From Charina bottae (Eukaryota; Chordata; Lepidosauria; Squamata; Charinaidae): a stretch of 64,000 nucleotides of DNA. Positions 8,868 to 64,000 of the stretch are shown one piece after another. The stretch spans positions 23,078,501 through 23,142,500 of the forward strand of contig JALMGJ010000008.1 in assembly GCA_023362775.1 (NCBI GenBank), in the 5' to 3' direction. A program made the position numbers and the translations under genes. A model generated the notes under the pieces. That model worked only from the letters and a program-made list of their open reading frames with translations. It was not told where the DNA came from and did not search any database. Every line of letters starts with the position of its first letter. Positions within the stretch are counted from its first letter, which is position 1.

Positions 8868-8954
8868 TACCATGATAATATGTCTATGAAGGTTCTCAGT
8901 CATCCAGGTGGAATTGTCTGTAGCTTGAATCATGTCAACTGGATTTCTATTTTC

Positions 8955-9005
8955 TTAGTGGAAACGTTTCGCTCCTTATCCAAGGAGCTTCTTCAGTCTG
9001 AGCAA
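8955..9005 (-). ncRNA. Hammerhead-ribozyme-like motif in Penelope terminal region (left)
   Basis: On the minus strand: CTCAG, then CTGAAGA (core CUGANGA with N = A), then a 7-bp helix GCTCCTT/AAGGAGC closed by GGAT, then GAAAC followed by GTT. This order, CUGANGA, helix II, GAAA, minimal helix III, cleavage triplet, is that of type I hammerheads known from PLE terminal repeats. Helix I is weak: outer CTCAG faces CTAAG, one mismatch. Activity is not shown. Confidence 0.75.
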
Positions 9006-9095
9006 AGTTGGTAAGGGAATCCTAAATATGTTCCTAGGTAGCTGTGTGACCTTACACCTGGGGCTAGGTCATGGTTATATTGAGATGTAATTTTT

Positions 9096-10360
9096 TTAAG
9101 TCCTTTTATCATCTAATGGAGGGTCGTTAAAATCACCATGCTGCTGTTGAGCTTCTGAAATGGTCTTAATCTTCCTAGGCACAGAAGACAACACAGGGAG
9201 GAAGATGGGGGAGAGTTTGTGCCTGAGGCCCCCACCTCTATTCAAGGAAGGATTTTCCAAGTTGGCATAAATGGATTCCTTGACCCCTCTCTCAAACCAC
9301 CTATCTTCTCTGTCTAAAATGTGAACATTAATGTCCTCAAATGAGTGTCCTTTTTCTTTTAGATGAAGATAAACTGCTGACTCTGGTCCTGTGGTGTTAT
9401 TTCTCCTGTGTTGGGCCATCCTCCTGTACATAGGTTGTTTGGTTTCTCCAATGTAGAGTTCAGAGCACTCCTCACTGCACTGGATTGCATAAACTACATT
9501 GCTTTTCTTATGTTTTGGAGTTTGATCTTTGGGGTGTACAAGCCTCTGTCTCAGTGTGTTGGTGGGTTTGAAATATACAGGTATGTGGTGTTTGCCAAAT
9601 ATCCGTTTTATCTTTTCAGACACGCCAGCCATGTAGGGAATGACCAGGTTCTTTCGTTTACTCTGAGTCTCAGCCCTATCTGTCGCTGTTTTAGGTCTGG
9701 TAGATTTAGATTTGGTGAAGGCCCAATTTGGATATCCACAGGCCTTCAGGGCTGTTCTCAGGTGCTGATTTTCATTCTTTTTGGAATCCATGGAGGTGGG
9801 GATGGTTTCTGCTCTGTGTGACAATGTCCTGATGACTCCTAGTTTGTGCTGCAGTGGATGGTGGGAGTCAAACATCAGATATTGATCTGTGTGTGTGGGT
9901 TTCCTGTAGATCCCTATTTCTAGCTTGCCACCGGTCCCAATGAGGACTTCACAGTCTAGGAATGCCAGTCTGTTGTCCTTGGTGTCTTCTCTGGTGAAGC
10001 TAATGTTGGCATCTATAGTGTTTATATGGTCCGTGAAGGCCTGTACTTCCTGGGCCTTGATTTTGACCCAGGTGTCATCCACATACCTAAACCAGTGGGT
10101 GGGCACCGTTCCCTGGAATGTGTTGAGTGCTTTCTTCTCCACTTCTTCCATGTATAAATTGGCCACAATGGGTGACACAGGAGAACCCATGGCACAGCCG
10201 TGTTTTTGTCTGTAAAAGTCACCTCTGTATGTGAAATAAGTGGTGTTAAGACACAGGTCCAGAAGATGGCAGATCTGGTTTGGGTTGAGATGGCTTCTCC
10301 TTTCCAGGGTGCTGTCCTCTTCTAGTCTCTTCCTGACAGCGGATAGAGCATGAGTGGTTT
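9096..10360 (-). pseudogene. Penelope-like ORF, reverse transcriptase C-terminal part plus GIY-YIG endonuclease (left copy)
   Basis: The frame is open from the internal junction at 10360 to the stop at 9096; the first methionine gives 364 residues (10190-9096), but it lies inside the reverse transcriptase, so no true start is present. Counting from that methionine, the catalytic YVDD motif is at 36-39. The GIY-YIG nuclease has NVVYAIQC at 231-238 and LYIGET at 245-250, followed by conserved Arg and His near 256-261 and acidic residues near 300. In Penelope elements the RT copies the RNA and the GIY-YIG domain nicks the target. The protein is 5'-truncated: the N-terminal region and early RT motifs are missing. 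The cysteine-rich CSEEC precedes the nuclease core. Confidence 0.88.
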
Positions 10361-11258
10361 CAGAGAAGACACCAAGGACAACAGACTGGCATTCCTAGAC
10401 TGTGAAGTCCTCATTGGGACCGGTGGCAAGCTAGAAATAGGGATCTACAGGAAACCCACACACACAGATCAATATCTGATGTTTGACTCCCACCATCCAC
10501 TGCAGCACAAACTAGGAGTCATCAGGACATTGTCACACAGAGCAGAAACCATCCCCACCTCCATGGATTCCAAAAAGAATGAAAATCAGCACCTGAGAAC
10601 AGCCCTGAAGGCCTGTGGATATCCAAATTGGGCCTTCACCAAATCTAAATCTACCAGACCTAAAACAGCGACAGATAGGGCTGAGACTCAGAGTAAACGA
10701 AAGAACCTGGTCATTCCCTACATGGCTGGTGTGTCTGAAAAGATAAAACGGATATTTGGCAAACACCACATACCTGTATATTTCAAACCCACCAACACAC
10801 TGAGACAGAGGCTTGTACACCCCAAAGATCAAACTCCAAAACATAAGAAAAGCAATGTAGTTTATGCAATCCAGTGCAGTGAGGAGTGCTCTGAACTCTA
10901 CATTGGAGAAACCAAACAACCTATGTACAGGAGGATGGCCCAACACAGGAGAAATAACACCACAGGACCAGAGTCAGCAGTTTATCTTCATCTAAAAGAA
11001 AAAGGACACTCATTTGAGGACATTAATGTTCACATTTTAGACAGAGAAGATAGGTGGTTTGAGAGAGGGGTCAAGGAATCCATTTATGCCAACTTGGAAA
11101 ATCCTTCCTTGAATAGAGGTGGGGGCCTCAGGCACAAACTCTCCCCCATCTTCCTCCCTGTGTTGTCTTCTGTGCCTAGGAAGATTAAGACCATTTCAGA
11201 AGCTCAACAGCAGCATGGTGATTTTAACGACCCTCCATTAGATGATAAAAGGACTTAA
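10361..11258 (+). pseudogene. Penelope-like ORF, GIY-YIG endonuclease part (right copy)
   Basis: This is the same protein as the left copy but starting later, at the residues REDTKDNRLAF, after the YVDD motif has been lost. The frame stays open to the stop at 11258 and matches the left copy almost residue for residue, so the GIY-YIG nuclease (LYIGET, R/H residues, acidic residue) is intact here too. The chance methionine at 10350 belongs to the other copy across the junction. Without RT this copy cannot be autonomous. Confidence 0.88.
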
Positions 11259-11350
11259 AAAATTACATCTCAATATAACCATGACCTAGCCCCAGGTGTA
11301 AGGTCACACAGCTACCTAGGAACATATTTAGGATTCCCTTACCAACTTTG

Positions 11351-11400
11351 CTCAGACTGAAGAAGCTCCTTGGATAAGGAGCGAAACGTTTCCACTAAGA
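11351..11400 (+). ncRNA. Hammerhead-ribozyme-like motif in Penelope terminal region (right)
   Basis: Mirror copy of the left motif: CTGAAGA core, 7-bp helix II with GGAT loop, GAAAC/GTT. It lies downstream of the ORF stop in the 3' region. The outer helix I candidate (CTCAG with CTAAG) has one mismatch. Confidence 0.75.
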
Positions 11401-11447
11401 AAATAGAAATCCAGTTGACATGATTCAAGCTACATACCATGATAATA

Positions 11448-21628: not shown

Positions 21629-22165
21629 TGGAGAATATCAGATTGATAAAAGTTACTCTAGTTTTCATTGAAAATATATCATTCTTAAGCTTCCAGGTTT
21701 ATAGTAATAACTTCCAGTGAAAAGAAAGATTTTAATCATCTCTATATATCAATAGGAGCTAGGTAAGGTGATCCCACAATAGCCAAACATTCAAACCACT
21801 TTGAAATCTGGGATCCATGAATTGTTCATCAGGTTACAAGTTCCTGCGCAGAATAGGATTTCACTGAATGATTGTTGGACTAGGATTCTTTCCTACTGCT
21901 TTATTTGAGGAAGAAAGATTCAAATCAGGCATACAGACCTCGATACAGATGTTTTCATTCCAGCTGTGGCGCTCAATGTACATTAAAAAAGAATAGGGCT
22001 TGGACTTCCAGTGGGGACATGGTGGACTAAACAGCTGTGCCCGCGGGCTCAGCGGGCGGAGCTGACAACGCAGCAGTTTTCTCGGGTTCAAGCAGGTTTT
22101 CCTGAAACCCAGGAGTGTTCTCTGGAAAATCACGCCATTTGTCCTCTGGACGGCTGCTTGCAGCC
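21629..22165. other. Unique sequence grading into a GC-rich patch
   Basis: From about 21990 to 22250 the base composition rises sharply ('gtgcccgcgggctcagcgggcgg'). This may be a piece of an L1 5' UTR, but I cannot support that by homology. Confidence 0.3.
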
Positions 22166-23027
22166 AGAAGATCACAAACAGTGTTCGTGTTCGACTGGTA
22201 AGAGCTAGCTCGGAGGCAGGGAAGTCACCATTTTCCAAGCCATGCTGTAGCCTTAAAGGGACACTAAGACCACCATCCCATTTCTAAATCACCCAATTTA
22301 TATTTCTTTTAAGTATGCCTACCCTAAGAGAAGGGGCGTGGTGGCTCAGCGGGTAAGACGCCAGGCTTGTCGATCGGAAGATCGCAAGTTCGGAGGTTCG
22401 AATCCCTAGCCCTGGGTGCGAAGTGAGCTCCCGCACTCGCCCCAGCTCTTGCCAACCTAGCAATTCGAAAGCATGCAAATGCAAATAGATGAATAGGCAC
22501 CACTTCGGTGGGTAGGTAACAGCGTTCCGCGCGTGTCATGTGGCCACATGACCGTGGAAGTGTCTTCGGACAATGCTGGCTCTTTGGCTAACAAACAGAA
22601 GATCACAAACAGTGTTCGTGTTCGACTGGTAAGAGCTAGCTCGGAGGCAGGGAAGTCACCATTTTCCAAGCCATGCTGTAGCCTTAAAGGGACACTAAGA
22701 CCACCATCCCATTTCTAAATCACCCAATTTATATTTCTTTTAAGTATGCCTACCCTAAGAGAAGGGGCGTGGTGGCTCAGCGGGTAAGACGCCAGGCTTG
22801 TCGATCGGAAGATCGCAAGTTCGGAGGTTCGAATCCCTAGCCCTGCGTGCGGAGTGAGCTCCCGCACTCGCCCCAGCTCTTGCCAACCTAGCAATTCGAA
22901 AGCATGCAAATGCAAATAGATGAATAGGCACCACTTCGGTGGGTAGGTAACAGCGTTCCGCGCGTGTCATGTGGCCACATGACCGTGGAAGTGTCTTCGG
23001 ACAATGCTGGCTCTTTGGCTAACAAAC
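22166..23027. repeat. 431-bp tandem duplication containing part of a Sauria SINE
   Basis: Unit 1 (about 22166-22596) and unit 2 (about 22597-23027) are offset by exactly 431 bp: 'gatcacaaaca' starts at 22170 and 22601. I see only two differences, both in the SINE near 22415-22425 versus 22846-22856. The unit runs from unique sequence through the SINE head to 'ctaacaaacaga'. The break occurs at short shared sequence (CAGA). Confidence 0.9.
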
Positions 23028-23096
23028 AGAGATGAGCACTGGCCCCTAGAGTCAAACACGACTGCACAAATGTGCGGGGGGAACCTTTACCTTTTT
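22332..23096 (+). mobile_element. Sauria-type SINE, partly duplicated
   Basis: The original SINE is flanked by the 12-bp TSD TACCCTAAGAGA at 22320-22331 and 23097-23108. The tandem duplication later copied its left TSD and first ~265 bp, so a truncated SINE (22332-22596) precedes the complete one (22763-23096). Both have the A box and B box; only the second has the BovB-like 3' end. Confidence 0.88.
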
Positions 23097-25382: not shown

Positions 25383-25850
25383 CTATTTAATGTTATATTC
25401 TTTTTGAATATATTTTATGAAGGGGTCCCATGTTTCATTATACTTCCCCATTTCTTTTCCTTTTATTAAATTTGTTAATTTGTCTGTTTGCATTAAATCC
25501 ATTACTTTTATAATCCATTCTTCTTTTGTTGGAATATTTTCTTGTTTCCAGTATTGGGCGTATTTTATCCTTGCAGCTGTACTTAGATACTGAAATAAAA
25601 CCTTTTGTTTTTTATTTATATTGTCTTCAATTTTACCCAATAAATATAATTCTGGTCTCATTCTTATTTCTTTGTCGAATATTTTACATACATATTTATG
25701 TATTTTGACCCAATATTTTTTTGCTTTTTCACATAGCCACCATACATGGTAGAAAGAACCCCTTTTGTTTTTGCATTTCCAACATAAAATAGAGTTACTC
25801 ATTTTTGATTTAAATAACACCTCAGGAGACATGTACCATCTAAAAATCAT
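25383..25850 (-). pseudogene. L1 ORF2 C-terminal domain, frameshifted
   Basis: A 155-residue frame in a different phase from the RT frame above. Near residues 23-39 it has the L1 C-terminal cysteine/histidine motif (CWKCKNKRGSFYHVWWLC). It ends in KEYNIK just before the 3' UTR. The phase change relative to 25852-27357 is explained by a single missing base. Confidence 0.88.
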
Positions 25851-25851
25851 T

Positions 25852-27357
25852 TTATACGTTTTCTCTTAAATCATTACTTAAAGTAAATTTTATATTTTTG
25901 ACCCAGATTTCTTGCCAATCTTCATATGTAATTTCAATTCCTAAATTTTCCTCCCATTTTTTCATGTATTTTTTAATTTTTATGTCCTTGGTTTTCATTT
26001 CCAGTAATGTTTTATATATTTTAGAAATTACATGTTCTTCCTCTTTTTCTAATATATTATCCCAATTATTTTCTATTTTTGTAAATTGATAATTTTTTTC
26101 GTCTATTTTATATTGCTCTTTTAATTGGAAATACGTAAACCAATGACATATTATATTTTCATTTTCTAGTTCTTCCCTTGTTTTAAGTTTCTGAGTATTT
26201 CCTTCAAATTTTAACAAATTTTTATATCTTATATATTCTTTTTTATTTTGACTCCCTAATCTGGTACATGCCTCTTGGGTTGACACCCATAGTGGAAGAT
26301 TTGGTAATAGTGTTTTTTTGTATTTGTTCCAAATATTTAGCAAGGATTTTCTTATTATGTGGTTATTAAATGCCTTATGTATTTTGCTTTTATTATACCA
26401 CATGTAACCGTGCCAACCATATCTATTGTCGTGTCCTTCTAAATTCAGTAATTTTTCATTTTCTAGTTTTATCCAATCTTTAATCCATATTAGGCCGCAT
26501 GTTTCATAATATAATTTAAGGTCTGGCATTGCTAATCCCCCTCTATCTTTTGTGTCTTGTAAATATTTTAATTTTATTCTAGGTTTTTTCTTTTGCCATA
26601 TAAATTTGGATATTTCTTTTTGCCATTTTATAAAAATTTGGTTTTTAATCATAATCGGGATTGTTTGGAACAAATACAAAAATCTTGGTAGTATATTCAT
26701 TTTTATTGTAGCAATTCTCCCCAGTAATGATAACTGTAAATTTGCCCATTTTTCAAGATCTTTTTTAATTTCTTTCCATAAATTTTCATAGTTATTTTTA
26801 TACAAATCTAAGTTGTTATCTGTTAATTGTATTCCTAAATATTTTAATTTTCTGACATTTTGAAATCCTGTTATTTGTTCTAATTGACTTTTTTCTTCTT
26901 TTGTCATATTTAAATTTATCATTTTGGTTTTCTGTATATTAATTTTAAATCCTGATAAATTGCCATATTCTTGTAATTTTAAAATTAATTTTTCTATTGT
27001 ATTTCTTGGGTTTTGTATTGTTATTACTAGATCATCTGCGAAGGCCTTTAGTTTATGATTATCCTGTTTTACCTTGATCTCTTCTATATTTTGATCTTTC
27101 CTGATTTCTTCCAGTAATACTTCTAGAACCAATATGAATAATAATGGTGAAATGGGACAGCCTTGTCTTGTGCCTTTTGTTATTGTACATTCTTGGGTTT
27201 CTTCTTCGTTTACCATTATTCTTGCTTTTTGAGTCTTATATATTGCTCTTATTGCTTTTATAAATTTTTCCCCAAAGTTTCTATTTTCTAGTACTTTAAA
27301 CATAAATTCCCAATTAACGTTATCGAAAGCTTTCTCCGCATCTAGAAATAATAACAT
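25852..27357 (-). pseudogene. L1 ORF2 reverse transcriptase fragment
   Basis: A 501-residue frame, open without interruption. It begins just inside the RT catalytic domain: DAEKAFD (first catalytic Asp) at 6-12, TRQGCPISPLLF at about 63-74, and the catalytic FADD box at 106-109. Thumb and linker region follow. The endonuclease and N-terminal RT are missing through 5' truncation. The frame ends at a one-base shift at 25851, and the protein's C-terminus resumes in the next frame (25383-25850). Long open frame with one lesion indicates a fairly young copy. Confidence 0.9.
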
Positions 27358-32739: not shown

Positions 32740-34725
32740 TTTTTCAAATTTATTCCCCGCCCATCTCCCATGCAAGGGACTCTGGGCGGGTTACAATAAA
32801 TAAAATTTAAAAACTATACAAAATATCTCACAAGCATAAAATAATAAAATAAAATCCAAGATGGATTAGGACCCGCAGAATGGATCATGGGGCTGCGGGG
32901 CCAGCCAACCCCAGGAGGCACTACCACCTCCATCGTCCCAGGCCAGGTGGCAGAGCCAGGTCTTAAGGGCCTTCCGAAAGGCCAGGAGGGAGGGGGCCAG
33001 TCTCACCTCCGGGGCAAGATATTCCATAGGGCGGGCGCTATCGCAGAGAAGGCACGCCTCCTGGACCCCGCTAGATGGAATTATCTTGTTGAGGGGGTCT
33101 GAAGCATGCCCTCTCTGCATGCACAGGTGGGGTGGGCCGAAGTTATCGGGACGAGACAATCCCTCAGGTACCCTGGTCCTATGCCATGTAGGGCTTTAAA
33201 GGTAATCACCAACACCTTGAATTGGACCTGGAAGCAAACTGGCACCCAATGCAGCTCGCGTAGCAGAGGTGTCACATGTGCCGATCTCCTGGCACCCATA
33301 ACTGCTCGCGCCGCCGCATTCTGCACCAGCTGAAGCTTCCGGATACTCTTCAAGGGTAGCCCCATGTAGAGCGCATTACAATAGTCTATACAGGAGATGA
33401 CAAGGGCATGAGTGACTGTTCGGAGGGCCTCCTGATCCAGGAAAGGGCGTAACTGGCGCACAACTCGAAGCTGTGCAAAGGCCCTCCTGGCCACGACTGC
33501 CACCTGCTCTTTGAGCAGGAGTTGCGAGTCCAGGAGGACCCCCAGATTCCACACTGGATCCGAGTGGGGTAGTGCAACCCCACCCAGAACCAAAGATGAC
33601 AACTTCCCGGATCCAGGGGGGCCATCAATCCACAGCCACTCCGTCTTAGCAGGGTTCAGTTGAAGCCTGTTGTTCCCCATCCAGACCCCCACAGCCTCCA
33701 GGCACTGAGATAAGGCATTGACCGCATCACTTACTTCACCCGGGATGGAGATGTATAACTGGGTATCATCAGCATATTGGTGATACCTCATCCCGTGGTG
33801 ACGGATGATCTCGCCCAGTGGCTTCATGTAGATGTTGAATAGGAGAGGAGAGAGAACCGACCCCTGCGGCACCCCACAAGTCAGGGGTCACGGGTCAGCT
33901 CTCTCCTCCCCTATCAACACCGACTGGGAATGGCCCTGGAGAAAGGAGGCGAACCAGCGCAAAACCACGCTGCCCGCCCCCAACTCCTCGAGCCGCCCCA
34001 AAAGTATACCGTGGTTGACGGTATTGAAAGCCGCTGAGAGATCTAAGAGAGCAAGGATGGACGCACTCCCTCCATCCCGCTCTTGCCAGAGATCATCCAT
34101 AAGCGCGACCAATGCGGTCTCTGTCCCATATCCTGGCCTGAAACCTGACTGGAAGGGGTCCAGATAATCCGTTTCCTTCAGAATCCTCTGGAGTTGCAAC
34201 GCCACCACCTTCTCAACCACCTTTCCCAAAAAGGGAAGGTGGGAGACTGGGCGAAAATTGCCCAGGATTGTAGGGTCCAGGGAAGGTTTCTTGAGGAGGG
34301 GGTGCACCAGCGCCTCCTTAAAGGCAGCCGGGAACACTCCCTCACTCAAGGATGAATTAATCATCGCCTGGACCCAGCCACATGTCACCTCACTAGCTGA
34401 TTTCACCAGCCAGGAGGGACATGGGTCAAGCTGGCATGTGGTGGCATTTACAATCCAGAGGATCCTGTCTACTTCATCAGGCGCAACAGGATCAAACTGT
34501 TCCCAGGTAACATGGTAAGTACGAGCCTCTGGCATCTCCCCAGATCTTGTCTCACGCATGGAGTCCAACTTGGAATGAATCTGAGCGAGTCCAGGAGGAC
34601 CCCCAGATTCCGCACTGGATCCGACTGGGGTAGTGCAACCCCACCCAGAACCAAAGATGACAACTTCCCGGATCCAGGGGGGGCCATCAATCCACAGCCA
34701 CTCCGTCTTACCAGGGTTCATGGGA
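32700..34725 (-). mobile_element. L2 LINE, 5'-truncated and rearranged
   Basis: Minus orientation. The 3' tail at the left has ATTT repeats (32707-32742) and the CCCGCCCATCTCCC block found at the ends of all L2 copies here. The coding part runs 32866-34585. About 138 bp at the 5' end (34584-34721) duplicates an internal segment (about 33524-33658), so the element is chimeric. GC content is well above its surroundings. Confidence 0.88.
33081..34580 (-). pseudogene. L2 ORF2 reverse transcriptase, one stop codon
   Basis: Two segments in the same frame, 33081-33872 and 33888-34580, are separated by a single in-frame TGA near 33884. Upstream part: RT N-terminal motif NFRPVSHLPFLGKVVEK and the catalytic LLDLSAAFNTV. 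Downstream part: [15 protein letters not shown], the catalytic YADD at 33-36 of that segment, then [18 protein letters not shown] and the L2 C-terminal domain. A frameshift near 33110 moves the last part (LLAFRKALKTWLCH) into the frame at 32866-33159. The endonuclease is missing. The placement in L2 rather than CR1 rests on the C-terminal wording. Confidence 0.88.
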
Positions 34726-34990
34726 GCTGAATCACACAGAGCATTTTTTCTCTTTCCTTTCTGTATATAATCAGTGAACATTGACTTCCATATTTCTGTG
34801 TGCACGATAAGGGAAGAAGAGGAGGGGTCTGGTCCCATCATTTTGGGACATTGCTTCAGCCTAACAGCTATTTCACTATTAAACCTGTTCTCTATAATTT
34901 GATTTCAAGGTACATCAACTAGCTTCCTGTACCTTTCATACACCCTTCTGCTTTTTTGGGGGGACAGCAGCAAAATGGGGTTAGACAAGA

Positions 34991-37908: not shown

Positions 37909-39485
37909 AGCTGCTCAAAAAAATAAAGGGAACACTGAAATAAGACATCCTAGATCTGAATGAATGAAATATTCGTATTAATTACTTTGTTCATTAGATA
38001 GTTGAATGTGCTGACAACAAAATCACACAAAAAGCAATGGAAATCAAATGTAAGCAACCCCTGGAGGTCTGGATGTGGAGTTACACTCAAAAATTAAAGT
38101 GGAAAAGAACACTACAGGCTGATCCAACGTTGATGTAATGTCCTTAAAACAAGTCAAAATGAGGCTCAGTAGTGTATCTGGCCTCCACGTGCCTGTATGA
38201 CCTCCCTACAATGCCTGGGCATGCTCCTGATGAGGTGGCGGATGGTCTCCTGAGGGATCTCTTCCCACACCTGGACTAAAGCATCCCCCAACTCCTGGAC
38301 AGTCTGTGGTGCAACGTGGCATTGGTGGATGGAGCGAGACATGATGTCCCAGATGTGCTCAATTGGATTCAGGTCTGGGGAACAGGCGGGCCAGTCCATA
38401 GCATCAATGCCTTCGTCTTGCAGGAACTGCTGGCACACTCCAGCCACATGAGGTCTAGCATTGTCTTGCATTAGGAGGAACCCAGGGCCAACCGCACCAG
38501 CATATGGTCTCACAAGGGGTCTGAGGATCTCATCTCGGTACCTAATGGCAGTCAGGCTACCTCTGGCGAGCACATGGAGGGCTGTGCGGCCCCCTAAAGA
38601 AATGCCACCCCACACCATTACTGACCCACTGCCAAACCGGTCATGCTGGAGGATGTTGCAGGCAGTAGAACGTTCTCCACGGCGTCTCCAGACCCTGTCA
38701 TGTCTGTCACATGTGCTCAGTGTGAACCTGCTTTCATCTGTGAAGAGCACAGGGCGCCAGTGGCGAAGTTGCCAATCTTGTGTTCTCTGGCAAATGCCAA
38801 ACGTCCTGCATGGTGTTGGGCTGTAAGTACAACCCCCACCTGTGGACGTCAGGCCCTCATACCACCCTCATGGAGTCTGTTTCTGACCGTTTGAGCAGCC
38901 ACACGGACATTTGTGGCCCACTGGAGGTCATTTTGCAGGGCTCTGGCAGTGCTCCTCCTGTCCCTTCTTGCACAAAGGCGGAGGTAGCAGTCCTGCTGCT
39001 GGGTTGTTGCCCTCCTACGGCCTCCTCCACGTCTCCTGATGTACTGACCTGTCTCCTGGTAGCGCCTCCATGCTCTGGACACTACGCTGACACACAGCAA
39101 ACCTTCTTGCCACAGCTCGCATTGATGTGCCATCCTGGATGAGCTGCACTACCTGAGTCACTTGTGTGGGTTGTAGACTCCGTCTCATGCTACCACTAGA
39201 GTGGAAGCACCGCCAGCATTCAAAAGTGACCAAACCATCAGCCAGAAAGCATAGGAACTGAGAAGTGGTCTGTGGTCACCACCTGCAGATCCACTCCTTT
39301 ATTGGGGATGTCTTGCTAACTGCCTATGCTTTCCGCCTGTTGTCTATTCCATGTGCACAACAGCATGTGAAATTGATTGTCAGTCAGTGTTGCTACCTAA
39401 GTGGACAGTTTGATTTCACAGAAGTGTGATTGACTTGGACTTACATTGTGTTGTTTCAGTGTTCCCTTTATTTTTTTTAGCAGTG
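37909..39485 (-). mobile_element. Tc1-family DNA transposon, full length
   Basis: Inverted ends: 37911-37940 and 39454-39483 are reverse complements with two or three differences, containing AATAAAGGGAACACTGAAA. A TA dinucleotide borders the left end; the right end runs into a GT microsatellite, so the right TA is unclear. The 1.57-kb length and gene layout are those of complete Tc1 elements. The wording resembles Tc1 elements I know from teleost fishes. Confidence 0.9.
38166..39198 (-). pseudogene. Tc1 transposase, inactivated
   Basis: Minus strand, three reading frames. N-terminus (from [17 protein letters not shown], near 39187) is a paired-type helix-turn-helix DNA-binding region; the frame then shifts near 39090 to the frame ending GGMRA (38849-39133), which hits a TGA (the codon after GGMRA, probably a decayed CGA); a further shift near 38780 leads to the catalytic part (38166-38750). 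That part has TDESRF (first Asp at 5), QDNARPH (Asp at 96) and NPIEHIWD (Glu at 131): spacing 34, so the DD34E triad is intact. Transposase cuts and pastes at TA. At least two frameshifts and one stop make this copy dead. Confidence 0.92.
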
Positions 39486-44418: not shown

Positions 44419-44472
44419 ATGGTGGGAGAATTGTCTGTAGCTTGAATCATGTCAACTGGATTTCTATTTTCT

Positions 44473-44523
44473 CAGTGGAAACGTTTCGCTCCTTATCCAA
44501 GGATCTTCTTCAGTCTGAGCAAA
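44473..44523 (-). ncRNA. Hammerhead-ribozyme-like motif (left arm, one helix II mismatch)
   Basis: Minus strand CTCAG, CTGAAGA, helix II GATCCTT/AAGGAGC (one mismatch), GAAACGTTTC, CTGAG. Core nucleotides are intact; helix I outer pairing CTCAG/CTGAG is perfect. Confidence 0.72.
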
Positions 44524-44594
44524 GTTAGTAAGGGAATCCTAAATATTCCCTTTAATATTAATATTTAATATTTAGGATTCCCTTACTAACTTTG

Positions 44595-44643
44595 CTCAGA
44601 CTGAAGAAGCTCCTTGGATAAGGAGCGAAACGTTTCCACTGAG
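44595..44643 (+). ncRNA. Hammerhead-ribozyme-like motif (right arm)
   Basis: CTCAG (44595-44599), CTGAAGA, 7-bp helix II with GGAT loop, GAAAC/GTT, and CTGAG (44639-44643) complementary to the first block. This is the best-preserved of the four copies of this family in the window. Confidence 0.8.
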
Positions 44644-44733
44644 AAAATAGAAATCCAGTTGACATGATTCAAGCTACAGACAATTCCACCTGGATGACTG
44701 AGAACCTTCATAGACATATGGTGGGAGAATTGT

Positions 44734-56285: not shown

Positions 56286-56480
56286 TCTGGTGTGATATTC
56301 AAACTGTTTCAAGCTCAAAGTAGTTTCACATTCAAAACAGGCTGTTTAAATCATTCTGGAAGTGTTTCACATTTAAAGTTACTAATTTATACATTCATAC
56401 TGAAGTACTGAAGTCCAAAGGAAACTGAAAATGCTGTCTGAAAAAAAATTATTAATGTGGAGTCCTTGGTGTTCTCTGAG

Positions 56481-56538
56481 CCTTGTTTTCTTGCAGACGT
56501 TTCATTGCCAGACTAGGCAACATCTTCAGTGTGAAAAG
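56481..56538 (-). ncRNA. Hammerhead-ribozyme-like motif of second PLE lineage
   Basis: Minus strand: TTTTC-ACA, CTGAAGA (56529-56523), helix II GTTGCC/GGCAAT (six pairs, one G-U) around TAGTCT, then GAAAC and GTC, then TGCAA-GAAAA. GUC is the preferred cleavage triplet. Helix I: A-U and C-G next to the core, and TTTTC/GAAAA further out. It overlaps the end of the ORF. Confidence 0.8.
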
Positions 56539-57395
56539 GAAGTGGGACTTGCTCTCTGTTTATATACCATGGCTTGTCCTGCTTGTGGTGGTGGTGGTGG
56601 TGTTCTCTCCTTAGGAGTTCCTTGATTGGGCTGTTGTTTGCTGCTTGGTTGATTGACTGAGTTACTAGTTCCTTGATTAGGGTATATTGTGCTGTTTGAT
56701 TGTTCCTCTGGTGCTAATCCTGGTGTTAATCTTTGCATATCTGGGTGTTGACTGCTGGCAAGGAGGTGTTCTGGTCTTTTGGCTTTTCTATTGTCTCTTA
56801 TAAATGGTATGTAAATGTTGTTTACCTCTATGTGTCTGCTGATGGCTGCTTTGTCTGAGTGCCAAGCTTCCAGGAATTTTCTAGCATTTTTGGATTTGGC
56901 TTGGTTTAAGATGCTCACAGTTTCCCAGTTGAAAGTATAGTTGAGTCTGTCCATGTGTTGTGAGATTAGGGAGTTTTCATCATGTCTTCTGACTGCTAGT
57001 TGGTGTTCGTGGATGCTCTCTGCTAGTCTTCTGCCCGTCTGTCCTACATAGTGGCTGCTACAGTCCTTACATTGTATGTTGTAGATAACTCCTGTTTTTT
57101 CTTCTTGGGCTACTGGGTCTTTTGGGTTACTTAAGATGTTCTGAAGGGTTTTTGTTGGTTTATGTGCTACAGTGATTCCATGTGGTTGTAACAGTCTATT
57201 GGTAGTTTCTGAGATGTTTCTGATGTATGGCAGTGTTATCCTTTTCATAGCTTCTGTTGGTTGTGTTGTCATGGGTTGGGTGGTCAGGCACTTTTTGATA
57301 AAATTGAGTGGGTATCCATTTTGCTGGAAGATGCTGTATAGATGATCTGTTTCCTTTTTCTGGTGTTCTGGGTTGCTACAGTGCATTAGTGCTCG
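56526..57395 (-). pseudogene. Penelope-like ORF, GIY-YIG endonuclease region
   Basis: An open frame of 301 residues (57431-56526), of which about the first 10 residues are flanking AT-rich sequence. GIY-YIG motifs: VIYNIQC at 115-121, HYVGQT at 127-132, Arg near 134-135, His at 141 and Glu at 188 (FLEAWHS). The segment before it is the RT thumb/linker; the RT core is missing. The C-terminal tail is rich in Pro, Gln and Ser. The domain is intact over its full length, but without RT the copy is not autonomous. The last ORF codons overlap the hammerhead motif. Confidence 0.88.
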
Positions 57396-57400
57396 TCTGA

Positions 57401-61567: not shown

Positions 61568-64000
61568 CAAGGGTCGGAAATGGCGGCTCGCGAGCCAGAT
61601 GCGGCTTTTTGGCCCCTTGAGTGTGGCTCTTCCGCAGCTGAACTCACCCCCGCCCCTTCCACGCGATTGGATCCCGCCCCCAAATGGCCGGCGCTGGAGG
61701 AGGGCGATTGATTCTTCCTCCTCCCGCCCTCGGGAGCCTTCCAGAGTCGGGCAGCGCTTCTTCGAGGTCGGCGGGTGGGGAAGTTGGTTGGTTGCCGCCG
61801 CCGCCTCTTCCTCCGCCCGCGTTGTAACGGCCGCCGCCGCCGCCCCCCCCCCCGAAGCTCGCCAGGCAGGCAGGAGAGCGTCGCCATGCTGGGCGCGCTG
61901 CGGGCGGAGCTGCCTTCCTGGCACTCGGGCGCTCCGGCTGGGGTGCAGCGGGACGGGAGCTCCGCCCGCGCGCCTTCCCTGGCCGGTCCTCGTGGGCCGA
62001 TCGCGTGGAAGGCGCGTGGGCGGAGCTGCCTGTCTGGCACTCGGGCGCTCCGGTAGCGCGGCCCCGTCGCCGCCCTTTCTCTCCGGCTTGGATCCCGGGA
62101 AGGCAGCGGGGGACCTCACGGAGGGAGGCAAGCAGGCAGGCGGCCCGCCTCTGCCGCTCTCCGCTTCCACCTCGCTTGCTGGAACATATTGAAGGGGAGG
62201 AAAAGGAAACATTAAGATGAACCAGGAGCTTTGCGGAGAAGCGGAGAGCGGCAGAGGCAGGCGGCGGCAGCAGCGAAGAGGCCACAGGCGCAGGAAGCAG
62301 CAGCCGCCGCCCGCCTCGCCTCTGCCGCTCTCCGCTTCTCCGCAAAGCTCCTGGTTCATCTTAATGTTTCCTTTTCCTCCCCTTCAATATGTTCCAGCAA
62401 GCGAGGTGGAAGCGGAGAGGCCACGGGCGCAGGAAGCAGCAGCCGGAGGCCGCCTCGCCTCTTCCGCTCTCCGCTTCTACCTCGCTTGCTGGAACGTATT
62501 GAAGGGGAGGAAAAGCAAACATTAAGACAGGGCTTTCCAAACTGTGTGTCGCGACGCAATACTGTGTCGCCTGGGGGCCCCAAGTGTGTCGCGTGACAAC
62601 CCGGAAGCTCTGATGAAAATGCCCTTGGTTCTGGCAGGGAGGCGAAAAACACGCATGCTGCAGGGCTGCCTGGGGTGGAAATTCTCTGCGCCGATCAGCT
62701 GTGCGCTGGGAAGCCAGCAGCGTGCGCATGCGATTTTCGCCTCCCTGCCGGAACCGAGGGCATTTTCAGGGTCCCTGGAGCCTGTCCTTTCAAAGGGGCA
62801 GTGGTGGCAGCGGACCATCAGCACTTCCAGGACACCGCTGCTGCCGCTGCCCCTTCAAAAGGGCAGGCTCCGGGGACCCCGAAAATGACCTTGGTTCTGG
62901 CAGGGAGGCGAAAATCACGCATGCTGCAGGGCTGCCTGGGGTGGAAATTATCCGCACCGATCAGCTGTGCGCTGGGAAGCCAGCAGCGTGCGCATGCGAT
63001 TTTCGCCTCCCTGCCGGAACCGAGGGCATTTTCGGGGTCCCCGGAGCCTGTCCTTTCAAAGGGGCAGTGGTGGCAGCGGACCATCAGCACTTCCAGGACA
63101 CCGCTGCTGCCGCTGCCCCTTCAAAAGGGCAGGCTCCAGGGACCCCGAAAATGACCTCAGTTCTGGCAGGGAGGCGAAAATCACGCATGCTGCAGAGCTG
63201 CCTGGGGTGGAAATTCTCCGCGCCGATCAGCTGTGCGCTGGGAAGCCAGAAGCGTGTGCATGCGATTTTCGCCTCCCTGCTGGAACCGAGGGCATTTTCG
63301 GGGTCCCCGGAGCCTGTCCTTTCAAAGGGGCAGTGGTGGCAGCGGACCATCAGCGCTTCCAGGACACCGCTGCTGCCGCTGCCCCTTCAAAAGGGCAGGC
63401 TCCGGGGACCCCGAAAATGACCTCGGTTCTGGCAGGGAGGCGAAAATCACGCATGCTGCAGGGCTGCCTGGGGTGGAAATTCTCCGCGCTGATCAGCTGT
63501 GCGCTGGGAAGCCAGCAGCATGCGCATGTGATTTTTGCCTCCCTGCCGGAACAGAGGGCATTTTCAGGGTCCCCGGAGCCTGCCCTTTCGAAGGGGCAGC
63601 CCCTGCCGCTGCAGCGGCAGCAACCCGGAAGCACCGCCGCTTCCAGGTCTTCGTGGGCCAGCCGTTGGTGTGTCGCCAACGGCAAAAGTTTGGAAAGCCC
63701 TGCATTAAGATGAACCAGGAGCTTTGCGGAGAAGCGGAGAGCGGCAGAGGCGGGCGGCGGCGGCAGCGAAGAGGCCACGGGCGCAGGAAGCAGCCGCCGC
63801 CGCCCGCCTTGCCTCTGCCGCTCTCCGCAAAGCTCCTGGTTCATCTTAATGTTTCCTTTTCCTCCCCTTCAATACGTTCCAGCAAGCGAGGTGGAAGCGG
63901 AGAGCGGAAGAGGCGGGCGGCGGTGGCAGCGAAGAGGCCACGGGCGCAGGAAGCAGCAGCCACCGCCCGCCTTGCCTCTGCCGCTCTCCGCAAAGCTCCT
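61568..64000. mobile_element. GC-rich hAT-like/fold-back repeat block, cut by window end
   Basis: The block starts CAAGGGTCGGAAATGGCGG followed by 'cgcgagcc' and 'gatgcggctttttggcccc', the left end of a widespread hAT-type non-autonomous element. Inside, a cassette is arranged as palindromes: 62161-62267 and 62309-62415 are reverse complements (about 107 bp each), and a second set of the same cassette brackets the hAT insertion at 62528 and continues past 63703. All long frames here, on both strands, follow from GC-richness and palindromy. CpG-dense, but nothing indicates a host promoter. Confidence 0.6.
62528..63702. mobile_element. Non-autonomous hAT transposon with 8-bp TSD and 266-bp internal repeats
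   Basis: Ends CAGGGCTTTCCAAACT and AGTTTGGAAAGCCCTG are perfect 16-bp inverted repeats. The 8-bp TSD CATTAAGA lies at 62520-62527 and 63703-63710, interrupting the fold-back cassette. The interior is four copies of a 266-bp unit ('cagggctgcc'-type anchor at 62661, 62927, 63193, 63459), the last partial. No transposase. Confidence 0.92.

What the first reader, a model, noticed from the sequence alone, without database searches (positions are those of the whole stretch)
8881..11434. Fold-back Penelope insertion with a single outer TSD
Two Penelope copies lie head to head with both 3' ends outward, and one 13-bp direct repeat (TACCATGATAATA) flanks the pair, so they arrived together. Arms of about 1.07 kb are nearly identical. 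The inner ends are at different positions (one keeps the YVDD motif, the other does not), which fits two priming events on one target or a rearranged template, rather than two separate insertions.
Basis: partly seen in the sequence, partly recalled or inferred. Interest (0 to 1): 0.8.

Follow-up and report, generated by a model that had tools for sequence, protein, structure and literature searches.

The report
Mirror-image double-primed Penelope retroelement insertion
The two mirror-image Penelope copies are one young insertion, most likely made when both cut strands of a single target were extended on the same element RNA from two neighbouring start points, and mirror-image insertions like it are common for this family in this genome.

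Summary
In detail: two Penelope arms (1.08 kb, 99.6% identical) lie head to head, 3' ends outward, inside one 13-bp TSD. The left arm carries 38 extra 3' nucleotides, the PLE 'tail', which the right arm lacks. A second, short fold-back of the same family lies at 44.4 kb.

The host assembly (1.80 Gb) could be searched. Of 33 stretches fetched around best matches, 25 are fold-backs. In all 58 distinct fold-backs whose two outer ends I read, one arm has the tail and the other lacks it; 36 of these were picked without tail information. 53 of 58 have a TSD of at least 12 bp. The arms of one insertion share source alleles (8 disagreements, 135 expected), and their inner ends are correlated (17 of 32 within 60 nt, 2.2 expected). 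A second PLE family follows the rule in 8 of 8 TSD-flanked pairs.

Best reading: both strands are cut, each 3' end primes at one of two adjacent start sites, usually on one RNA, and the two cDNAs are joined. This fits in vitro work on an Anolis PLE (PMC11167929) and speaks against antisense self-priming (PMC3846280). The layout is known; I did not find the strict pairing rule in print.

The parts
8868..8880 (.). Left copy of the 13-bp TSD (TACCATGATAATA)
8881..10358 (-). Tail arm (U1235-2711): 5'-truncated PLE unit with part of RT, GIY-YIG, pLTR and tail
8881..8918 (-). The 38-nt 3' tail (U2674-2711) that the right arm lacks
10359..10360 (.). 2-nt filler at the inner junction (unit ruler)
10361..11434 (+). 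No-tail arm (U1600-2673): C-terminal ORF with GIY-YIG and pLTR
11435..11447 (.). Right copy of the TSD
11357..11391 (+). Hammerhead-like core CTGAAGA...GAAACGTT (motif recalled; mirrored at about 8962-8996); no Rfam hit at gathering score
   Evidence: sequence
44419..44434 (.). Left TSD copy of the second fold-back (ATGGTGGGAGAATTGT, part may be microhomology with the element)
44435..44546 (-). No-tail arm of the second fold-back (U2563-2674)
44547..44567 (.). 21-nt filler at its inner junction
44568..44717 (+). Tail arm of the second fold-back (from U2563)
44718..44733 (.). Right TSD copy of the second fold-back

Best explanation
One insertion of a Penelope-type element by two-strand target-primed reverse transcription. 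(1) The GIY-YIG protein, perhaps as a dimer, cuts both strands about 13 bp apart at a loosely two-fold-symmetric AT-rich site, leaving two 3' overhangs. (2) One overhang primes at the tail site of the element RNA, the other at a second site about 34 nt upstream, usually on the same RNA molecule. (3) Both cDNAs run towards the RNA 5' end, the no-tail one more often slightly ahead. (4) The inner cDNA ends are joined, with microhomology or filler, and filling of the overhangs leaves the outer TSD. Shown from sequence: outer ends, TSDs, one tail per fold-back, shared source alleles, correlated inner ends in about half of the cases. Inferred: the dimer, the order of events, the single RNA, the joining route. 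In the window's 8.9-kb locus the inner ends are not coupled (tail arm 365 nt longer), so there the two cDNAs stopped separately.
For: Tail on exactly one arm in 58 of 58 distinct fold-backs with both outer ends read, 36 of them picked by tail-free queries. TSD 12-17 bp in 30 of 30 of the first set, mode 13; 24 of 29 of the second set at 12 bp or more. T-rich just outside both cuts. Arms share alleles: 8 disagreements against 135 +- 14 in 2000 shuffles, none as low. Inner ends within 60 nt in 17 of 32 against 2.2 (0 of 10,000 permutations). Small offsets are mostly no-tail-ahead: 25 against 5, 7 within 2 nt. In L012 the two starts lie a whole unit apart but the inner ends 14 nt apart. The tail end aligns with the RT start codon reported for Anolis PAc, which cuts and extends both strands in vitro. 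A second PLE family: 8 of 8 TSD-flanked pairs have one tail.
Against: About half of the fold-backs, including the window's main locus, have uncoupled inner ends (15 of 32 beyond 60 nt, both signs), so the single RNA is not shown for them. The PAc paper saw no difference in start site between top and bottom strand. Gene conversion between arms could raise allele sharing. The 25 short pairs were picked for closeness, so their coupling is weaker evidence. 8 of 33 loci show only one arm, so double priming is not obligatory. One of the 58 (L100/L101) lacks a TSD and four have only 7-9 bp.
Confidence: 0.72

Rival explanations
1. Self-priming: an antisense transcript (proposed in PMC3846280) or the first cDNA folds back at its 3' end and copies itself, and the hairpin is integrated.
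For: Short hairpin-like inner junctions are frequent, and in most coupled cases the extra loop bases belong to the no-tail arm. Arms are near-identical. Published as the favoured hypothesis for rotifer PLEs (passages).
Against: A copy of one arm cannot carry a tail which that arm lacks, nor be longer inward than its template: tail arms are longer inward by more than 60 nt in 7 of 32. Both outer ends abut target DNA at two fixed start sites. A mixed form, with self-priming only at the inner end, is not excluded.
Confidence: 0.12
2. Two-strand priming on two separate RNA molecules made by the same source copy, with the start site fixed by an asymmetric protein dimer.
For: Explains one tail per insertion, the TSD and shared alleles, and fits the uncoupled half (15 of 32). 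The PAc paper reports a predicted protein dimer.
Against: Does not predict inner ends within 60 nt at scattered positions in 17 of 32.
Confidence: 0.12
3. Two separate insertions, one next to or into the other.
For: Complex arrays of the family exist (L031, L048), and a few close pairs lack a TSD (L100/L101; L108/L109 and L112/L113).
Against: One outer TSD and none at the junction; shared alleles; 29 head-to-head against 1 tail-to-tail pair within 5.5 kb in the listed places.
Confidence: 0.02
4. Assembly artefact (false palindrome).
For: Inverted duplications are a known assembly fault; no reads were available here.
Against: The arms differ at both ends and by small changes, and the same layout with different TSDs recurs at many loci.
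Confidence: 0.01

Closest known systems
Poseidon PAc of Anolis carolinensis (PMC11167929; parts 1-3 of 4 read)
   Same: GIY-YIG/RT protein; both target strands cut and extended in vitro; RT starts at two adjacent internal RNA sites that define the tail; our tail end falls on the homologous codon
   Different: The paper describes RT products in vitro and the optional tail; in the text seen it does not describe fold-backs or a one-tail rule
Penelope families of the rotifer Adineta vaga (PMC3846280; passages)
   Same: Head-to-head inverted pLTR, tail optionally on one of the inverted pLTRs, TSD (8-10 bp in the passages), short junction overlap or palindrome
   Different: Read there as self-priming on an antisense template; few copies; here the arms often include coding sequence and the TSD is mostly 13 bp
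L1 twin priming (recalled; no call)
   Same: Both target strands prime on element RNA and cDNAs are joined in opposite orientation
   Different: As recalled, the second priming in L1 is internal, so the two parts are mostly different segments; here both start near the 3' end and the arms repeat the same sequence

Membership tests
Penelope-like elements (PLE) | PLE-type RT joined to a C-terminal GIY-YIG domain | tested here: met
   Pfam RVT_1 and GIY-YIG in the left unit, GIY-YIG in the right; close PLE-like proteins, best 74% identity
Penelope-like elements (PLE) | Tandem or partial-tandem units (pseudo-LTRs) | tested here: met
   2711-bp period in L012 and L027
Penelope-like elements (PLE) | Optional 30-40-nt tail at one end | tested here: met
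Penelope-like elements (PLE) | Short target site duplication and inverted pLTR | tested here: met
Penelope-like elements (PLE) | Hammerhead ribozyme motif | tested here: inconclusive
   Core-like sequence by eye (motif recalled); no Rfam family at gathering score, no hammerhead among weak hits
Poseidon/Penelope clade within PLEs | Placement in the RT tree | not tested
   Only an N-terminal alignment to PAc, score 66 against a shuffled maximum of 43; no tree was built
L1-type twin priming | Inverted part from a different segment than the direct part (recalled) | tested here: not met
   Arms repeat the same sequence

The most novel reading that the evidence does not exclude
PLEs normally insert by a two-headed reaction: one RNA with two built-in start sites takes up both strands of a double cut, each strand at a different site, and two reverse transcriptases travel in file along that RNA, the trailing one often stopping about 6-21 nt behind, so that a palindrome is the ordinary product. 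The tail would then be the fixed mark of which strand took which site.
Probability: 0.5. Interest if true: 0.8.

Novelty: new variant of a known kind. Interest (0 to 1): 0.62.

Why it matters
How Penelope-like elements complete insertion is open. One tail per fold-back, plus correlated inner ends, turns that question into direct tests, and an in vitro system exists (PMC11167929). It also accounts for many palindromic repeats in this genome: 58,577 places match the 3' end with at most one mismatch. Palindromes matter for genome stability and for repeat annotation, where such copies could be taken for inverted-repeat DNA transposons (inference).

Tried and rejected
Hammerhead cleavage as the cause of the no-tail end: rejected, since the recalled cleavage point lies about 43 nt away from it. 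Snap-back of either cDNA as the whole explanation: rejected. A GACA motif at both start sites (ours and PAc) looked like a rule, but it is not at the ends of the second PLE family. Rfam gave nothing at gathering score and only weak unrelated hits. The fold of the 3' region is no more stable than shuffles (z -0.12). Whole-window self-comparison showed no other long fold-back of high identity.

Rows dropped or adjusted. L027, L030, L031, L034 and L048 lack one outer end in the fetched stretch and are not in the 58. L028b is an old copy with one arm's 3' end missing and no TSD; not counted. L037 was not in the 30-row table and was added; L030 has no TSD because its flank is out of view. L094/L095 is the same locus as L037 and is counted once. 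L072's +317 offset is an alignment split (one search gives +10). In one search the label of L053 (tail) and of L057/L059 (no tail, one duplicated insertion) was set by eye; L067 gave no match. In one search L106's TSD (12 bp, one mismatch) was read by eye. Pairs of the second family were counted by eye.

Full report
OBSERVATION. Arms 8913-9993 and 10361-11440 are inverted repeats of 99.63% over 1081 bp, differing by one substitution and one indel, inside a 13-bp direct repeat. The PLE C-terminal frame is open in both arms, so the insertion looks young. Homology to other PLE proteins starts at 'TTHALSAV' in the left unit. On the 2711-bp unit ruler U, which is one real tandem unit (L012:3725-6435), the left unit begins at U1235 and the right at U1600. 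The outer ends differ: the left arm reaches U2711 and the right arm stops at U2673. The 38-nt difference corresponds to what the PLE literature calls the tail.

SECOND CASE IN THE WINDOW. At 44419-44733 a short fold-back of the same family has its own TSD and again one tail and one no-tail arm, the latter ending at nearly the same internal point (U2674 against U2673).

GENOME SURVEY. The window's assembly (1.804 Gb, 278 contigs) could be searched (41 matches, 40 of 139 candidates scored). I fetched 33 stretches, which cover the places listed other than the window itself and a tandem group on C1 near 238.94 Mb. At the matched place 25 of 33 are fold-backs and 8 show one arm (L010, L014, L017, L023, L032, L033, L039, L041). 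That query contained the tail. I therefore sampled without it. A coding-region query (41 matches, 40 of 88 candidates scored) gave 8 head-to-head pairs with two full matches and no tail-to-tail pair; one is the window's own locus and six of the seven others had both outer ends in view (L048 did not). A 20-nt pattern ending just inside the no-tail end gave 58,577 places with at most one mismatch, and none for the reversed control. In the 100 places listed there, 29 neighbouring pairs within 5.5 kb are head to head, 3 same-strand and 1 tail to tail; about 13 such neighbours of any orientation would be expected by chance. The listing covers the first 4 Mb of one contig and shows only one strand over part of it, so it is not a random sample of the genome.

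THE ONE-TAIL RULE. Fold-backs with both outer ends read: 30 in the first set and 29 in the second, that is all 29 pairs; one locus is in both, giving 58. All 58 have exactly one tail. 36 of them (7, 29) were picked without tail information. A TSD of 12 bp or more is found in 53 of 58, of 7-9 bp in 4 (L083, L086, L088, L093) and none in 1 (L100/L101, 4 kb apart, perhaps not one insertion). The remaining 19 single places gave 9 tail and 9 no-tail ends, one insertion being duplicated, with two labels set by eye; their partners were not read. The tail 20-mer itself has 31,696 exact places; a matched count for the end pattern was not obtained. No-tail ends lie at U2672-2680 in most loci, with exceptions such as L013 (U2670) and L024 (U2657).

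TARGET. TSD length in the first set is 12-17 bp, 13 in 15 of 30; a few bases of it can be microhomology with the element. Just beyond each cut the priming strand is rich in T: +2 is T in 18 of 30 on the no-tail side (p = 0.0012) and in 19 of 30 on the tail side (p = 6e-5), uncorrected. The target is thus roughly two-fold symmetric, and I saw nothing in it that decides which strand gets the tail.

SAME SOURCE, PROBABLY SAME RNA. At 31 sites that vary between loci, the two arms of one insertion disagree 8 times over 30 loci; with no-tail arms shuffled among loci the mean is 135 +- 14 and 0 of 2000 shuffles are as low. Gene conversion between arms could add to this. Inner ends lie within 60 nt of each other in 17 of 32 against 2.2 by permutation (0 of 10,000), although the coupled ends are scattered from U373 to U2563; the other 15 are uncoupled (8 no-tail-ahead, 7 tail-ahead), the window's main locus among them. 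With 25 short pairs added, 37 of 57 are within 60 nt: 25 no-tail-ahead, 7 within 2 nt, 5 tail-ahead (sign test p = 3e-4); these 25 had been picked for closeness, and one large offset (L072) is an alignment split. In L012 the no-tail arm began in an upstream pLTR and the tail arm one 2711-nt unit further downstream, yet the inner ends are 14 nt apart. A shared RNA 5' end explains this most simply.

JOINING. Of 32 inner junctions 20 carry 1-109 nt of filler and 12 have 0-4 nt of microhomology. This resembles end joining; the route is not identified.

COMPARISON. PMC11167929 (parts 1-3 of 4 read) shows for Anolis PAc that both strands are cut and extended, and that RT starts at two adjacent internal sites which define the tail; it saw no difference in start site between the strands. 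Our tail end (ORF nt 53) falls on the codon that aligns with PAc nt 115-117, inside the reported start region 111-118. PMC3846280 (passages) describes head-to-head inverted pLTRs with a tail optionally on one of them and TSDs, and proposes self-priming on an antisense template. The layout is therefore known. I did not find the one-tail rule, the allele sharing or the offset of inner ends in print; the searches were in the held open-access library, of whose hits I opened three papers, and several key older papers are not held.

GENERALITY. A second PLE family, with a 5'-truncated copy near 56.4-57.4 kb of the window, has 10,663 exact 3'-core places; in the 100 listed, 10 neighbouring pairs within 5 kb are head to head and 2 tail to tail (counted by eye). 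Of the 10 head-to-head pairs, 8 have a TSD (10-16 bp, one read by eye) and all 8 have one tail of about 35 nt; the two without TSD are none/none (L108/L109) and tail/none (L112/L113).

VERDICT. The event is ordinary for this family, and the family-wide pattern is the interesting part.

Noticed in passing
56430-57400 (-): 5'-truncated copy of a second PLE family with a GIY-YIG-like C-terminus by eye (no Pfam hit); it ends at that family's no-tail end. Members elsewhere form tail/no-tail fold-backs.
   Followed up: partly
44419-44733: Second, short fold-back of the same PLE family with its own TSD.
   Followed up: yes
22165-23030: Two tandem 431-bp copies, 99% alike; related sequence also near 2.9, 21.3 and 29.6 kb.
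   Followed up: no
62615-63599: 266-bp unit repeated 3.7 times, about 95% alike, in GC-rich sequence with inverted repeats nearby.
   Followed up: no
25383-27357, 33081-34841, 38166-38750 (all -): Open frames that look by eye like two LINE-type reverse transcriptases and a Tc1/mariner-type transposase.
   Followed up: no
L012, L027, L031, L048: Longer arrays of the PLE: tandem units of 2711 bp and complex mixtures of direct and inverted pieces.
   Followed up: partly
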